Of a DNA stretch of 64,000 nt, positions 47,190-53,372 are shown piece by piece. Origin of the DNA: Aureococcus anophagefferens (lineage: Eukaryota; Sar; Pelagophyceae; Pelagomonadales; Pelagomonadaceae); assembly GCF_000186865.1 (NCBI RefSeq), contig NW_008705579.1, positions 421,443-485,442 of the forward strand, in the 5' to 3' direction. The notes beneath the pieces are model-generated. The model was not told where the DNA came from, did no database searches, and saw only the letters and a list, made by a program, of their open reading frames with translations. The translations under genes were made by a program, and so were the position numbers. The stretch's first letter is position 1. Each line of letters opens with the position of its first letter.

Positions 47190-48104
47190 TTAGTTCGCGG
47201 TCGGGCGGGCGGTCGAGGGCAGCGGGACGGCGGTCGGGGCCGCGGACGGGGCGGTCGGGGTCTTGGACGGCGCGGCGGTCGGCGCGGCGGCGGTCGGCGC
47301 GGCGGTTTTCTTCGCGGCGCGCTCCGCGCGCTCGCGGCGGTTCCGCGCGGAGGGCGGCTCCGCGTCGAGGGCGCCGAAGTGCGTGAGGAGGACGGCGATC
47401 TTGTTCATGAGGCCGTTGGCCCAGCCGTTGAGGATGCAGAAGTTGCAGTTGAACTCCTCGTGGTGCTTCTGGTGCGCGTCCGGGTGTAAAATCACGCGCC
47501 AGTCCTGGAGCTTCTCCAGCAGGGGATAGTCCTTCAGCAGCCCGCGGTTGCGCGCGTGGGCGAGGAAGTGGGTCTGCTGGCTCGGCAGGCCCACGATCAG
47601 CGCCGTGAGCCAGACCCGGCTCGTGGCCTCGGGCGCGTAGCCGTAGTGATAAGCTAAGAAGAACAGCGGCCAGACGACGCGGACGTACCAGAAGAGCTGC
47701 ATGAAGAGCTCGAGCTGCGAATCGCTCGACGGGAACACGGCCTCGTGGTGGCTGTGGAAGTTCCACAGGTATTGGTCGTGCTCGTCGGCCTCCGTGAAGA
47801 GCGCCGTCTCCTCGAAGGCCTTGACGCCGTCGACGGTAGTTTCCACGTGGAGCCGCAGGGCGTCGTTATTCACGGTCTGGAAGTCGAGGAGCATGTGGAT
47901 GAGGCCCGTCACGAAGTCGGCGACGTAGAGGGCCAGCAGGAACTCCACGACCGTGCGCGTGCAGAGGTAGGCGTAGCCGTCGCCGCCCCCCGTGAGGCCC
48001 CCGCCGATGACGGCGCCCGCCGTCTCGATGACGACGCATGCGATCGCGAAGCCCGTGACGCCCGTCAGCCCCAGCTTCACCGTCGTCTCCACCGAGCCCC
48101 ACAT
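47190..48104 (-). CDS. Kua/TMEM189/FAD4-type lipid desaturase
   Basis: The 304-residue product matches the lipid-desaturase (Kua-TMEM189) domain shared by plasmanylethanolamine desaturase and plastid FAD4. Membrane helices carry VADFVTGLIHMLLDF, then WNFHSHHEAV, LPSQQTHFLAHARN and QDWRVILHPDAHQKHHEEF. The last provides the clustered histidines for a di-iron site. FCILNGWANGLMNK follows. The C-terminal 60 residues are an Ala/Pro/Thr-rich tail. No plastid signal is seen, so an ER enzyme making plasmalogen-type vinyl ethers or another phospholipid double bond is slightly favoured. The gene is divergent from the zinc-ribbon gene. Confidence 0.8.
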   Translation of the reverse strand: MWGSVETTVKLGLTGVTGFAIACVVIETAGAVIGGGLTGGGDGYAYLCTRTVVEFLLALYVADFVTGLIHMLLDFQTVNNDALRLHVETTVDGVKAFEETALFTEADEHDQYLWNFHSHHEAVFPSSDSQLELFMQLFWYVRVVWPLFFLAYHYGYAPEATSRVWLTALIVGLPSQQTHFLAHARNRGLLKDYPLLEKLQDWRVILHPDAHQKHHEEFNCNFCILNGWANGLMNKIAVLLTHFGALDAEPPSARNRRERAERAAKKTAAPTAAAPTAAPSKTPTAPSAAPTAVPLPSTARPTAN

Positions 48105-48756: not shown

Positions 48757-50295
48757 TCACCGGCTCGCGACGGCGACCTTGGGCGGCGCGGCGAGGGACC
48801 GGAGCGCCCCGGAGTCGGCGAGCGCGGCGGAGCCCGGGCCGCAGAGCTCCTTGTAGAGCTCGAGCGCGTGGAGGCAGTCGCCGACGGAGACGTCGTTGAA
48901 GACGCCCGCGGTGCCGACGCCCGTCGGGAGCGGCAGCCGGATGCCCATGGAGAGCTGGAAGCGCTCGTGGTAGGCGTGCTCGACGAAGTCCGGCGTCATC
49001 ATGTCGTGCCAGATCGGGCAGCCGAACGCGTCGAGCGCGCGGAGGATCCGGAGCATCTCGTCGCGCTCGACGAGGCCCAGCGTGTGCGCGAGCACGGTCA
49101 TGTAGGCCATGTCGACGTTGACGGCCTCGCCGTGCGTGAGCTCGACGTCCGTGCCGAGGGCGTGCATCTCGAGCTCCTGGCCGAACGCGTGCCCGAAGTC
49201 GACGAGGCGGTCGAGCGACGACTCCCACAAATTCGGCGCGAGCTCCTCGAGCATGGTCGCGATGGAGAGCTGGAGCACCTCCCCGGGCACGGCGTCGTCG
49301 CCCTGGAAGCGCGTCGCCACGAGGCGGCCCGCGTGGGCCTCGAGCAACTCGAAGAGCCGCGGCGACTTCATCAACGCCATCTTCATCATCTCCGACACGC
49401 CCGACGCGACGGCCCGCGGCTCCTCCGTCGCGAGGAAGGCCCGGTCGAGGAGCGCGGCGACGGGCGGCACGTAGGCGCCGAGGCGGTTCTTCGAGCCCAT
49501 GAAGTTGACGCCCGATTTCGCGCCGATGGACGCGTCGACGTAGGACAGCGTCGTCGTCGGCACGCGGACGTAGGGCGACTTGCGGCGGAAGAGGGACGCG
49601 GCGAGGCCGATGACGTCGAGGCAGACGCCGCCGCCGATGCCGATGACCGGCGACCCGCGCCGCGGCATGTCGAATTTCTTCATCGCCTCGCAGACCTTGA
49701 GCACGAGGTCCATGGACTTCTCCTCCTCGACCATGGGCAGGCGCAGCACCGTGTAGTCGACGCCCCGGGCCTCCATGTAGTCCACGACGCCGGACCCGTA
49801 GAGGTCGTCGACGGTCTCGTCGATGACGACGAGGCGCCGCTGCGCCGTCCGCGCGGCCGCCGCGCGCTCGGGGCTGCCCGCGGCGAGGTGGCCGAAGAGC
49901 AGGTTGTCGTTGGCCGGGTCGAGGAGGCCCGGCGCCTCGACGACGGCGTAGTCGAAGGTCACGTGGCTGCGCACGCTCCAGGCCTTGGCCGCGCCGCCCG
50001 CGTCCGCCGCGTCGATGCGCGCGGGCGACAGCCGCGCGTCGGAGTGGAGGGCCCGGTCGCCGTCGGCGATGGTCGTCCACGTGTCGCCGACGAGGGCGAG
50101 GTTGCCGGGCTTGGGACCCGCGGGCGCCGGCGGCAGGGGCAGGATGTTGTGCTTCGCGGCGCGCACCTCGGCGACGTCGGAGGCGAGCACGTCGCGCTGC
50201 GACGGCGGCCGCTGGCTCCGCGCGCCGCCGGGCTGGAGGGCGGCGTGCGGCGCGAGCTGCAGGGCCAGGAGCGCGCACGCGAGGATCGACGACAT
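48757..50295 (-). CDS. C7-cyclitol synthase (EEVS / desmethyl-4-deoxygadusol synthase type)
   Basis: The 512-residue product belongs to the dehydroquinate-synthase-like sugar phosphate cyclases that act on sedoheptulose 7-phosphate. It has GIGGGVCLDVIGLAASL (219-235), YVRVPTTTLSYVDASIGAK, GVNFMGSKNRLGAY and Zn ligands in SEMMKMAL (Glu302), DFGHAFG (His369) and THGEAVNVD (His388). ELAPNLWESSLDRLVDFGH matches EEVS and DDGS enzymes rather than true dehydroquinate synthase. Which of the two products it makes cannot be told by eye. An N-terminal signal-like segment (MSSILACALLALQLA) and a roughly 100-residue extension precede the fold. The gene is divergent from an O-methyltransferase/SDR fusion, which supports a gadusol-type pathway. 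Confidence 0.85.
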   Translation of the reverse strand: MSSILACALLALQLAPHAALQPGGARSQRPPSQRDVLASDVAEVRAAKHNILPLPPAPAGPKPGNLALVGDTWTTIADGDRALHSDARLSPARIDAADAGGAAKAWSVRSHVTFDYAVVEAPGLLDPANDNLLFGHLAAGSPERAAAARTAQRRLVVIDETVDDLYGSGVVDYMEARGVDYTVLRLPMVEEEKSMDLVLKVCEAMKKFDMPRRGSPVIGIGGGVCLDVIGLAASLFRRKSPYVRVPTTTLSYVDASIGAKSGVNFMGSKNRLGAYVPPVAALLDRAFLATEEPRAVASGVSEMMKMALMKSPRLFELLEAHAGRLVATRFQGDDAVPGEVLQLSIATMLEELAPNLWESSLDRLVDFGHAFGQELEMHALGTDVELTHGEAVNVDMAYMTVLAHTLGLVERDEMLRILRALDAFGCPIWHDMMTPDFVEHAYHERFQLSMGIRLPLPTGVGTAGVFNDVSVGDCLHALELYKELCGPGSAALADSGALRSLAAPPKVAVASR

Positions 50296-50585
50296 GGTGC
50301 GCTGGCTGGGGTGCGTATAGGGGTCAGGGTGTTTGGTTTCCCGCGGGGCTGCCTGAAGTTTATAGCTCAGAGCTGCCCGAAGAAGAGAAGGGGTACGCCA
50401 GAGATATATTTGAGATGAAGCGGACAAGTCAGCGCGGCTGAAGTTTGGGCGTAGTCAACTTCAGCGGCGAAGAGTGAAGTGAAGACATCTGAGTGGCAGC
50501 CCGCGATTTGAGGTGGCCGGCGCGTACGTAAAGTCCGAACAAAAGCATTCCCAAGCAGCACCACCCCGTCCAGTCAGCGACCACC
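50296..50585. promoter_or_regulatory. 290-bp shared promoter of the cyclitol synthase / methyltransferase pair
   Basis: The spacer between the two divergent starts contains an 8-bp inverted repeat CTGAAGTT / AACTTCAG at 50437-50463 with an 11-base spacer. A TATA-like GATATATTT is at about 50401-50409, and several GAAGTTT or GTGAAGTGAAG motifs occur. Co-regulation of the pair is inferred; the inverted repeat is a candidate factor site. Confidence 0.45.
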
Positions 50586-52474
50586 ATGTGCGAGGGCCCC
50601 ACCGTCGTCAAGGAGCAGCACCGCGCCAAGGAGCAAGCCTCGAGCATCTTCGGCATCCGCGCCGCCGAGACCGTCGCGCGCGCCGCGCTGCCCGAGACCC
50701 TCGCGGAGATCGAGGCGCCCGTGCCGGACACGCCCAGCGAGCGCCTCGCGGCGCTCATCGACGAGGTGCGCCTCCCGCCTCGCGCCCCGCGCGCGCCGCC
50801 GCGCCGCGCGCGCGCCGCCGCCTCCTCCGCGCGCGCGCCGACGCGCGGCGCTCGCAGGCCGGCGCGCTCGTCCACGGCCAGGAGGAGTACCTGCTCAAGT
50901 GCACGTCGCCGCCGTCGGCGGCCGCCGCGGCCCTCGAGGCGAAGACGCGGGCCGCGGACTGGAAGGCCCACCACGCCGCGGGCGAGACCAAGTTCCTCTT
51001 CAGCGACTGTTGGACGACGGACGTCGTGGAGGCGAAGACGCTCGCCATGTTCGCGGCCATGCTCAAGGCGCGGCGCGTCCTCGAGATCGGCATGTTCACG
51101 GGCTACGGCGCTTTGACCATCGCCGAGGCGCTCCCCGCCGACGGCGAGATGATCACCTTCGAGATCGACCCGTTCCTCGAGCGCTTCGCGCGGCCCGTCT
51201 TCGACGCCTCGCCCCACGGCTCGAAGATCGACGTCAAGATCGGCGACGCGCTGGCGAACCTGAAGGCCTGGCCCGCGGACAAGAAGTTCGACATGGTCTT
51301 CGTCGACGCGGACAAGGGCTCCTACCAGGCCTACTACGACACCGTGCTGGACCGGGGCCTCCTCGCGCCGGGCGGCGTCGTCGTCGTCGACAACGTGCTC
51401 TTCAAGGGCGCGCCCTACGTCGGGCCGTCCAAGTTCGACAACCGGTCCTGGAACGACGGCGGCGCCGCCGTCGCGGCCTTCAACGACCACGTCGCCGCGG
51501 ACGACCGCGTCGAGCAGGTCATGCTGCCCATCCGCGACGGCATCACGATCATCCGCCTCAAGGACCAGCCGGCGCTCGCGCCCGTCGCCGCCGCCGCCGC
51601 GCCCGTCGTCGCCCAGGCGCCCGAACCCGTCGTCGTCGCGCCGCCGGCGCCGCCCGCGGTCGAAGTCGCGTCCGACGCGGTCGTGTCGGGCGTCGGCAAC
51701 AAGCCCATCCTCGACCGCATGCGCCTCGACGGCAAGGCGGCGCTCGTCACGGGCGCGGGCCAGGGCATCGGCCGCGCCTTCGCCCACGCGTTGGCCGAGG
51801 CCGGCGCGGCGGTCTGCGTCGCGGACCTCGACTTGGACCGCGCGAAGGCCGTCGCCGCGGAGCTCGAGGCCAAGGGCGCGCGCGCGTACGCGCACAAGGC
51901 CGACTGCGGCGACCCGGCGGCGATCGCGTGCATGGTCGACACGGTCGTCGAGAAGTTCGGCGCCATCGACATCGCCGTGAACAACGCGGGCGTCAACAAG
52001 AACTCCGCGGCCGAGGACACGCCGCTCGCGGACTGGGACCTGACGTTCAACCTAAACACGCGCGGCGTCTTCCTCTGCTGCCAGGCCGAGGCGAAGCACA
52101 TGCTCGCCAAGGGCTGCGGCAAGATCATCAACACGGCGTCCATGGCGTCGCTCCTCGTGCCCCACCCGCAGAAGCAGGCGGCCTACAACTGCTCCAAGGC
52201 CGCCGTCGTCAAGCTCACGCAGAGCCTCGCGTGCGAGTGGGCCGGCCGGGGCCTCAACGTCAACTGCGTGAGCCCGGGCATCGTCGACACGCCCCTCATC
52301 TGGGACAACCCGGCCCTCAACAAGCTCGCGGACCAGTGGCTCGCGCAGATCCCCGCGAACCGGCTGGCGCAGGTCACGGACCTCCAGGCCGCCGTCGTCT
52401 ACCTCGCCTCCGAGGCCTCGGACTACATGGTCGGCCACAACCTCGTCATCGAGGGCGGCCAGTCCCTCTGGTAG
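50586..52474 (+). CDS. O-methyltransferase fused to short-chain dehydrogenase, two exons
   Basis: Exons 50586-50765 and 50858-52474 give 598 residues (92-bp GT-AG intron, phase 0). The N-terminal domain is a class I O-methyltransferase like those of cyanobacterial mycosporine clusters: EYLLKCTSPPSA, RVLEIGMFTGYGALTIAEAL (133-152), VFVDADKGSYQAYY (207-220), VVVDNVLFKG and RVEQVMLPIRDGITIIRL. After an Ala/Pro/Val linker (297-340) comes a complete classical SDR: TGAGQGIG (358-365), NNAG (435-438), a Ser at 488/491, and Tyr503-x3-Lys507. The methyltransferase-then-oxidoreductase order matches the fish MT-Ox that converts 2-epi-5-epi-valiolone to gadusol. With the divergent cyclitol synthase it would form a compact sunscreen pathway. 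Confidence 0.85.
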
Positions 52475-52532: not shown

Positions 52533-53168
52533 TTACGACGACCCGACGTCGTAGACGCGGACCTTCAGGCCCCGGACGGACCGCTCGAAGGCGCACTTCC
52601 AGCCCCGGAGCTCGAAGCCGACGCAGACGACGACGCCGCGCTCCAGCTCCGCCTCGAGCGTCGCCAGGAGCTTCGCGCAGCCCTCCCGGAACAGGTACGC
52701 GACGACGACGTCGCCGGCCGCCAGGAGCGGCGCGCCGTCGAAGAAGTCGCGCCGCTCGAGCGTCGCCCGGCCCGCGAGGCCCCGGCGCGCGAGCGCGTCG
52801 CGGCCTTTAACCAACAAAGCCTCGTCGAGGTCGTAGCCGACGCCGACGCAGTCGTAATGTTCGCACGCGGCGACGAGCCACCGCGCGTCGCCGCAGCCGA
52901 GGTCGACGACGCGCCTCGGCGCCATCGACCCGTCCTTGGTCAGCGTGCCCCGCGCGGCGAGGGCGGCCAAGATGTCGCGCACGAGCTCGGGCGGCGACGG
53001 CGAGATGGGCGCGACGAGCGCCGCGTCGCCGGCGGCGGCCTGCTGGGCCTCGAAGCGCTCCTTGGCGAGCCTGATGAGCGCGGCGCGCGTCGCCGATTTT
53101 TTGGACGAGGTTGATGGCGCGTTTGATGGCTGCTTCGGCTGCTCCTGGTGCTCCGACAGAGCAGCCAT
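52533..53168 (-). CDS. SAM-dependent methyltransferase, FAM173-like
   Basis: The product is 211 residues from ATG 53168. The core is RVVDLGCGDARWLVAACEHY, the SAM-binding motif I, then VGVGYDLDEALLVKGRDAL and DVVVAYLFREGCAKLLATLE. This order resembles the FAM173/ATPSCKMT lysine methyltransferase group, but the resemblance is limited to these blocks. The sequence upstream of 53168 contains short repeats (AGAGCAGCCAT in tandem) offering further in-frame ATGs at 53192 and 53363, so the start is uncertain. It converges on the methyltransferase/SDR gene. No link to the sunscreen pathway is proven. Confidence 0.6.
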   Translation of the reverse strand: MAALSEHQEQPKQPSNAPSTSSKKSATRAALIRLAKERFEAQQAAAGDAALVAPISPSPPELVRDILAALAARGTLTKDGSMAPRRVVDLGCGDARWLVAACEHYDCVGVGYDLDEALLVKGRDALARRGLAGRATLERRDFFDGAPLLAAGDVVVAYLFREGCAKLLATLEAELERGVVVCVGFELRGWKCAFERSVRGLKVRVYDVGSS

Positions 53169-53372
53169 CTCGCCGCTCGACAGAGCAGCCATCACGCCGC
53201 TCGATACTGCACCTTTGGCTGGTTTGCCAGATGTTTGCCAGATGTTTGCCCCTGTTGACCTCAACTGAGGCGAGCATGAGCGCGGCTTAGGGCCCGACTT
53301 GCGCGCGCAAACCCCACCCGACAACCCACAAACCCCACCCGACAACCCACAAACCGCCCACAACCATCAGCC

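What the first reader, a model, noticed from the sequence alone, without database searches (positions are those of the whole stretch)
48757..52474. Two-gene gadusol / 4-deoxygadusol-type sunscreen cluster in an alga
A C7-cyclitol synthase (EEVS/DDGS type) is head-to-head with one protein that joins a mycosporine-type O-methyltransferase to an SDR oxidoreductase. Established knowledge: fish make gadusol with EEVS plus a bifunctional MT-Ox, and cyanobacteria make 4-deoxygadusol with DDGS plus a separate O-methyltransferase. Here the synthase is linked to a methyltransferase-SDR fusion in the MT-then-Ox order but with a cyanobacterial-style methyltransferase, a hybrid or convergent arrangement. 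No ATP-grasp ligase or NRPS-like partner lies in the window, so the product may be a free gadusol-like compound.
Basis: partly seen in the sequence, partly recalled or inferred. Interest (0 to 1): 0.9.

Follow-up and report, generated by a model that had tools for sequence, protein, structure and literature searches.

The report
Brown-tide alga's gadusol sunscreen gene pair
This stretch, which most likely comes from the brown-tide alga Aureococcus anophagefferens, holds two head-to-head genes that are predicted to make the natural sunscreen gadusol in the same two steps that fish use; the pair was already pointed out in that species in 2015, so it is real but not new.

Summary
Window 48757-50295 (-) encodes a 512-aa C7-cyclitol synthase. 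Head to head with it, 290 bp away, 50586-52474 (+) encodes a methyltransferase-SDR fusion (598 aa, one inferred 92-nt intron). [quoted passage not shown] The fusion is the ordinary MT-Ox: it aligns with zebrafish MT-Ox (zgc:113054, 53% over 94%), and all 120 listed hits have the same domain order. Its methyltransferase belongs to a family that also holds MysB, as the fish one does, but placing it inside the MysB group is rejected (AU p = 6.6e-8), so the "hybrid or convergent" reading is not supported. A hit named Aureococcus anophagefferens is identical at 209 of 209 aligned methyltransferase residues, and the 2015 eLife paper on zebrafish gadusol already names that species as having adjacent EEVS and MT-Ox genes. 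A cyanobacterial MysC query finds nothing in the 49-Mb assembly, with three control genomes positive (one the query's own), so a free gadusol-type product is likeliest. The product is untested. Of more interest in passing: a second, unassigned sugar-phosphate cyclase in this genome, and methyltransferase-EEVS fusions in plankton.

The parts
48757..50295 (-). [quoted passage not shown] residues 1-58 precede the stretch that aligns with fish EEVS and begin with a hydrophobic run
   Evidence: 4p53 290 bits against 5tpr 172 bits; tree; discriminating residues, hydropathy; fish alignment starts at residue 59
50296..50585 (.). 290-bp region between the two divergent start codons; would hold the promoters of both genes (inferred)
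   Evidence: length; promoter function not tested
50586..50765 (+). MT-Ox exon 1 (60 codons)
   Evidence: same N-terminus as P0123 (named A. anophagefferens); 'PDTPxERL'-type block shared with relatives
50766..50857 (+). inferred GT..AG intron, 92 nt, phase 0
   Evidence: borders; protein alignment runs through the join; no RNA evidence
50858..51580 (+). MT-Ox exon 2, region used as the methyltransferase domain (PF01596)
51734..52474 (+). MT-Ox exon 2, C-terminal SDR oxidoreductase domain (PF13561/PF00106) and stop codon
   Evidence: 168 of 253 aligned residues identical to zebrafish

Best explanation
This is an EEVS plus MT-Ox gene pair, most likely of Aureococcus anophagefferens, that is predicted to make gadusol by the fish route. 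Predicted steps: EEVS cyclises sedoheptulose 7-phosphate to 2-epi-5-epi-valiolone. The SDR half of MT-Ox would then oxidise a ring hydroxyl with NAD+, and the methyltransferase half would methylate the resulting enol with SAM, giving gadusol. Shown here: gene anatomy, domain order, homology along nearly the whole length to the characterised zebrafish MT-Ox, placement of the synthase with EEVS, and no match to a bacterial MysC in the assembly. Inferred: the chemistry (from the zebrafish enzymes), UV protection as the role, shared regulation from the 290-bp divergent region, and possible plastid or secretory targeting of EEVS while MT-Ox stays in the cytosol.
For: EEVS: best solved match is 4p53 (ValA, 290 bits), DDGS 5tpr far behind (172 bits). 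In a 54-row tree the synthase lies in a starred clade with plankton relatives and fish EEVS (100/100), joined to bacterial EEVS rows (94/95), apart from 12 DDGS/MysA rows (99/95) and 4 rows taken as DHQS (100/100). Of 6 columns that separate 4 EEVS from 12 DDGS rows it matches EEVS at 4, neither at 2, DDGS at 0. MT-Ox: 53% identity over 94% to Danio rerio P0195, the protein that PMC4426668 shows turning EEV into gadusol (passages; zgc:113054 is the gene name there); MT 112 of 230 and SDR 168 of 253 aligned residues identical. No MysC match in G000 while G001, G002 and G003 (the query's own genome) give one each. The other methyltransferase loci of this genome that entered the tree (4 of 6) fall with other O-methyltransferases, not with MysB.
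Against: No metabolite, expression or enzyme data for this alga. The EEVS-wide clade support (94/95) is just under the starred level, and the program warned of long branches meeting among bacterial and viral rows. At two of the six discriminating columns the window matches neither group. The published 14-site EEVS fingerprint could not be checked because its paper is not held. Whether all MT-Ox domains, fish and green algae included, form one clade apart from MysB is not resolved (76/68 support). A weak MysD-like hit (22 bits, E 9.3e-4) was not followed up, and MysE was not searched. A ligase unlike MysC could still conjugate gadusol.
Confidence: 0.85

Rival explanations
1. The pair makes the gadusol core, but an unlinked ATP-grasp or other ligase then joins it to an amino acid, giving a gadusol-core mycosporine, as proposed for green algae.
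For: [quoted passage not shown]
Against: A cyanobacterial MysC query finds nothing in the assembly while it finds a match at 55% identity in each of two actinobacterial control genomes; no ATP-grasp domain in the window frames scanned. The query was bacterial and intron-rich or divergent ligases could be missed.
Confidence: 0.12
2. A cyanobacterial-type route: the synthase makes desmethyl-4-deoxygadusol and the methyltransferase acts like MysB, giving 4-deoxygadusol.
For: MysB, MT-Ox and MT-EEVS methyltransferase rows form one group apart from the other O-methyltransferase rows (100/100); 49% identity to a Prochloron MysB.
Against: Grouping the window domain with the 20 MysB rows is rejected, AU p = 6.6e-8; the synthase is outside the DDGS clade and matches DDGS at 0 of 6 discriminating columns; the fused SDR has no known role in the DDGS route.
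Confidence: 0.03
3. The synthase is an ordinary dehydroquinate synthase of the shikimate pathway and the neighbouring fusion is unrelated.
For: Several database relatives are named 3-dehydroquinate synthase; the best Pfam and NCBIfam hits are DHQS-type.
Against: Score 181.5 bits against the curated aroB cut-off of 305; separate from a starred group of 4 rows taken as DHQS, which includes this genome's own C3 copy.
Confidence: 0.01

Closest known systems
EEVS + MT-Ox gene pair of Aureococcus anophagefferens (PMC4426668, eLife 2015)
   Same: Very probably the same species (P0123: 209 of 209 aligned MT residues), same two adjacent genes, same domain order; the paper calls both proteins over 50% identical to vertebrate ones.
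   Different: Nothing in kind. Here the exon structure, head-to-head spacing and a genome-wide look for a MysC ligase are added.
Zebrafish EEVS (LOC100003999) and MT-Ox (zgc:113054), gadusol synthesis shown in vitro and in yeast (PMC4426668)
   Same: Co-linear MT-SDR fusion, 53% identical over 94%; a fish EEVS (Sardina, P0113) is sister to the plankton EEVS clade that holds the window.
   Different: The algal EEVS has a longer N-terminus with a hydrophobic stretch that the Sardina protein lacks.
Green algal EEVS/MT-Ox/ATP-grasp/O-MT neighbourhood (PMC7826186)
   Same: EEVS and MT-Ox side by side; Tetradesmus MT-Ox P0234 is 53% identical.
   Different: No ATP-grasp or CCoAOMT-type O-MT gene found beside the pair in the frames scanned here; no MysC match in the assembly.
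Cyanobacterial/actinobacterial mysA-mysB (DDGS + O-methyltransferase) clusters
   Same: A sugar-phosphate cyclase next to a related methyltransferase (20 of 80 fetched loci).
   Different: Different cyclase clade; MysB is a separate methyltransferase clade and none of the 80 loci has an SDR fused to it.

Membership tests
[quoted passage not shown]
   Pfam DHQ_synthase and DHQS_C; the 16 solved relatives are named dehydroquinate synthase (alone or in AROM), 2-deoxy-scyllo-inosose synthase or 'cyclase' (4p53)
[quoted passage not shown]
   Tree of 54 rows: with fish EEVS 100/100, with ValA and other bacterial EEVS rows 94/95; the DDGS clade 99/95 and the DHQS group 100/100 exclude it
[quoted passage not shown]
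   4 of 6 own discriminating columns EEVS, 2 neither, 0 DDGS; the published 14-site list was not available
[quoted passage not shown]
   needs enzyme assay
MT-Ox (gadusol-forming) | N-terminal SAM methyltransferase fused to C-terminal NAD-dependent SDR | tested here: met
   (domains and order; cofactor use not tested)
MT-Ox (gadusol-forming) | Homology along the length to the characterised zebrafish protein | tested here: met
   297 of 561 aligned positions identical, query residues 39-598
MT-Ox (gadusol-forming) | Adjacent to an EEVS gene | tested here: met
   290 bp between divergent start codons
MT-Ox (gadusol-forming) | Turns EEV into gadusol with SAM and NAD+ | not testable with these tools
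   needs enzyme assay
Cyanobacterial MysA/MysB (4-deoxygadusol) route | Methyltransferase in the MysB clade | tested here: not met
   AU p = 6.6e-8 against it
Cyanobacterial MysA/MysB (4-deoxygadusol) route | Synthase in the DDGS clade | tested here: not met
Cyanobacterial MysA/MysB (4-deoxygadusol) route | MysC ATP-grasp ligase in the genome | tested here: not met
   0 matches in G000 with one bacterial query; 3 of 3 control genomes positive, one being the query's own genome

The most novel reading that the evidence does not exclude
Gadusol synthesis in this alga is split between compartments: EEVS, with its hydrophobic presequence, sits in the plastid and draws sedoheptulose 7-phosphate from the Calvin cycle, while MT-Ox finishes the molecule in the cytosol. 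In related plankton the same module has been re-cut, the methyltransferase moving from MT-Ox onto the N-terminus of EEVS.
Probability: 0.3. Interest if true: 0.45.

Novelty: already known. Interest (0 to 1): 0.2.

Why it matters
It confirms, with gene structure and trees, that a bloom-forming stramenopile carries the same predicted gadusol pathway as fish. PMC4426668 proposes that vertebrates got these genes by horizontal transfer, with algae as a plausible source (passages). The search also lists relatives named as haptophytes and a brine shrimp, which would help test that origin. As a discovery it adds little, because the species and the gene pair were named in 2015.

Tried and rejected
Rejected: a DDGS-type synthase; a true dehydroquinate synthase; a MysB-type methyltransferase. 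Bacterial EEVS neighbourhoods: 2 of 396 genomes of one phylum had a match at 1e-60; around these two and a Streptomyces clavuligerus one, no full methyltransferase match was found, only a 17-bit one (L107), and two SDR matches in L108. Relatives in phage records (14 records, 24.1-31.5% identity) and plasmid records (20 records; the 15 listed are S. clavuligerus at 40.1%) were weak.

Led nowhere: two papers on EEVS fingerprints and distribution are not held. Aureococcus + mycosporine in the literature (listing) gave a general remark in PMC3474721 (passages) besides the 2015 eLife paper. Pfam on four frames around the second cyclase gave no obvious pathway partner. NCBIfam gave no family above its cut-off.

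Rows left out of counts: the EEVS tree used 31 of 120 listed hits, 11 of 20 mysA loci, 9 other loci, 2 typed PDB stretches and the window. The MT tree used 20 of 120 MT-Ox hits, 6 of 9 MT-EEVS fusions, 20 MysB rows, 13 of 60 other bacterial loci, 4 of 6 other own-genome loci and the window. Own-genome cyclase pieces on C48 (L004, L005) were not put in the tree and are unclassified. Two mysA rows (L018, L019) sit on a long branch in the DDGS clade, L018 with visibly aberrant motifs; both were kept in the counts. The program warned of long branches meeting (the viral row with an actinobacterial row; the DDGS rows with L018/L019), and the tree was not rebuilt without them.
Full report
WHAT IS THERE. 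The window lies in a 49.05-Mb, 86-contig assembly at C19:421443-485442; its 2-kb bins are 64-83% G+C. [quoted passage not shown] Head to head with it, the plus strand encodes a methyltransferase-SDR fusion. ATG 50586 opens exon 1 (50586-50765), a GT..AG intron of 92 nt follows (50766-50857), and exon 2 runs to the stop at 52474; the product is 598 aa. Relatives align through the join, and P0123, named Aureococcus anophagefferens, has the same N-terminus. The start codons are 290 bp apart. The splice is inferred; no RNA was available.

WHICH ORGANISM. P0123 ('O-methyltransferase [Aureococcus anophagefferens]') is identical at 209 of 209 aligned methyltransferase residues and 189 of 200 aligned SDR residues; its annotation drops pieces of the gene. 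P0115, named for the same species, matches the synthase at 217 of 293 positions, with scattered disagreement that looks like a poor gene model. A full-length unnamed cluster, P0002, is 508 of 512 identical. I conclude that this is A. anophagefferens (a pelagophyte) or a near-identical strain.

THE SYNTHASE IS AN EEVS. Among solved structures the best match is 4p53 (290 bits), which PMC4426668 names as ValA, the validamycin EEVS; 5tpr (172 bits; that it is a cyanobacterial DDGS is recalled) is second and dehydroquinate synthases follow. In a 54-row maximum-likelihood tree the window protein sits with its nearest plankton relatives (100/98 for six rows) and then with fish EEVS (100/100). That group joins ValA and other bacterial EEVS rows (94/95, just below the starred level), while 12 DDGS/MysA rows form their own clade (99/95) and 4 rows taken as DHQS another (100/100). 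The program warned that some long branches meet, and the bacterial EEVS rows are long. Six alignment columns are fixed in 4 EEVS rows and differ in at least 11 of 12 DDGS rows; the window matches EEVS at 4 (A233, L352, D366, E390), neither at 2 (G219, V300) and DDGS at none. This is my own set, not the published 14-site fingerprint, whose paper is not held.

THE FUSION IS MT-OX. The big protein search returned 774 matches, of which 120 are listed; all 120 (P0122 being the window's own) contain a methyltransferase domain followed by an SDR domain. They include Danio rerio P0195 (53% over 94%); PMC4426668 shows the zebrafish MT-Ox converting EEV to gadusol with SAM and NAD+ (passages). Others bear names or taxids of the haptophytes Calcidiscus leptoporus and Coccolithus braarudii, the green alga Tetradesmus, the brine shrimp Artemia franciscana and many fish. 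Identity to zebrafish is 112 of 230 in the methyltransferase and 168 of 253 in the SDR. Motifs that I recall as functional (glycine-rich TGAGQGIG and YxxxK in the SDR; DADK and DN in the methyltransferase) are present in the alignment.

IS THE METHYLTRANSFERASE CYANOBACTERIAL IN STYLE? In 20 of them (L013-L032, cyanobacteria and actinobacteria) a cyclase gene lies directly upstream of the methyltransferase, the mysA-mysB arrangement, and none of the 80 has the SDR in the same frame. Identity is up to 49% with MysB and 48% with zebrafish, so identity does not decide. The 64-row tree does: MysB is one clade (98/97), the window lies with 13 other MT-Ox domains from plankton (99/95), and MysB, MT-Ox and MT-EEVS domains together are separate from the other O-methyltransferase rows (100/100). 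Holding the window with MysB costs 91.9 log-likelihood units, AU p = 6.6e-8. Against a tidy picture, whether all MT-Ox and MT-EEVS domains form one clade apart from MysB is weakly supported (76/68). MT-Ox and MysB are related families, the fish enzyme as much as the algal one, and nothing here is a hybrid.

REST OF THE GENOME. A MysC query from an Anabaena locus (L017; named by position and resemblance, from recall) finds nothing in this assembly and finds one match each in G001 and G002 (55% identity) and G003 (its own genome). A MysD-type query gives one 22-bit hit, not followed. MysE was not searched. The best other methyltransferase in the genome (44% identity over residues 59-235 of the query) falls among the other O-methyltransferases. 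The window frames scanned with Pfam show ordinary genes (peptidase S46, kinesin, diacylglycerol acyltransferase, proteasome subunit, mitochondrial carrier and others) and no ligase.

HOW IT WORKS. From the zebrafish enzymes: sedoheptulose 7-phosphate to 2-epi-5-epi-valiolone by EEVS, then oxidation and O-methylation by MT-Ox to gadusol. All chemistry is inferred for this alga. The EEVS begins with a hydrophobic stretch (maximum 12-residue hydropathy 2.48). At least 1.5 is reached in 9 of 17 EEVS sequences looked at (two of them near-identical), and not in the fish row; none of 10 MT-Ox proteins exceeds 0.97. Plastid or secretory targeting of EEVS is therefore possible; this is a hydropathy count, not a targeting prediction.

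NOVELTY. PMC4426668 states that A. anophagefferens and Coccomyxa subellipsoidea were then the only non-vertebrates with a similar MT-Ox in the databases, each with a predicted EEVS gene adjacent, and proposes algae as a source of the vertebrate genes (passages). PMC7826186 describes the green algal clusters (passages). The finding is therefore already known. My literature searches on this were made, in an open-access library only.

BEYOND THE FINDING. Two things look less ordinary. First, the genome has a second cyclase at C39 that falls outside both the EEVS and DDGS clades. Listed relatives carry names from Aureoumbra, Chrysophaeum, Calcidiscus and Emiliania, and its product is unknown. EboD is another unassigned lineage near EEVS and DDGS (PMC5133447, passages); I did not compare the two. 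Second, 9 of the 120 listed EEVS hits are fused to a methyltransferase at their N-terminus. That methyltransferase falls next to the plankton MT-Ox domains in the best tree (99/95), but a tree with MT-Ox held together without it is not rejected (AU p = 0.219), so domain re-cutting is possible, not shown.

Noticed in passing
L002:1393-3309 (-), genome place G000:C39:211727-212716: A second sugar phosphate cyclase gene (638-aa frame) outside the EEVS and DDGS clades, with mixed motifs (VDASVGIKVAVNY, KNGVG, HGEAV). Relatives carrying names from Chrysophaeum (76%), Aureoumbra (73%), Calcidiscus (65%) and Emiliania (54%) are listed; some bacterial relatives (e.g. Microbulbifer, 41-43%) also carry Gfo/Idh/MocA oxidoreductase domains. 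Product unknown.
   Followed up: partly
P0033, P0038, P0041, P0045, P0048, P0053, P0064, P0065, P0066: Nine of 120 listed EEVS hits have a methyltransferase fused in front of the EEVS, unlike the DDG synthase/O-MT fusions described for dinoflagellates and red algae (PMC9298759, passages). Unfused neighbours in the tree include P0070, taxid of the dinoflagellate Pyrodinium bahamense.
   Followed up: partly
L093:4284-9782: A viral contig (IMG/VR) encodes an EEVS-like cyclase followed by an SDR-like protein and, further on, what looks like a DegT-type aminotransferase, with a nucleotidyltransferase-like protein upstream (the last two named by eye): a possible C7-cyclitol cassette in a virus.
   Followed up: partly
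P0220: Artemia franciscana (brine shrimp) is named as having an MT-Ox of the same architecture, 51% identical; PMC4426668 says that gadusol is found in brine shrimp cysts and nauplii.
   Followed up: no
P0006 and P0126: An EEVS and an MT-Ox cluster from unnamed organisms both report a longest contig of 7,203 bases, which hints that the pair is linked in another alga.
   Followed up: no
window 47190-48104 (-): Gene beyond the synthase: a protein with a lipid desaturase domain (PF10520).
   Followed up: no
window 52533-53363 (-): A methyltransferase-like frame just past the MT-Ox gene, Pfam scores below the curated cut-offs; not obviously related to the pathway.
   Followed up: no
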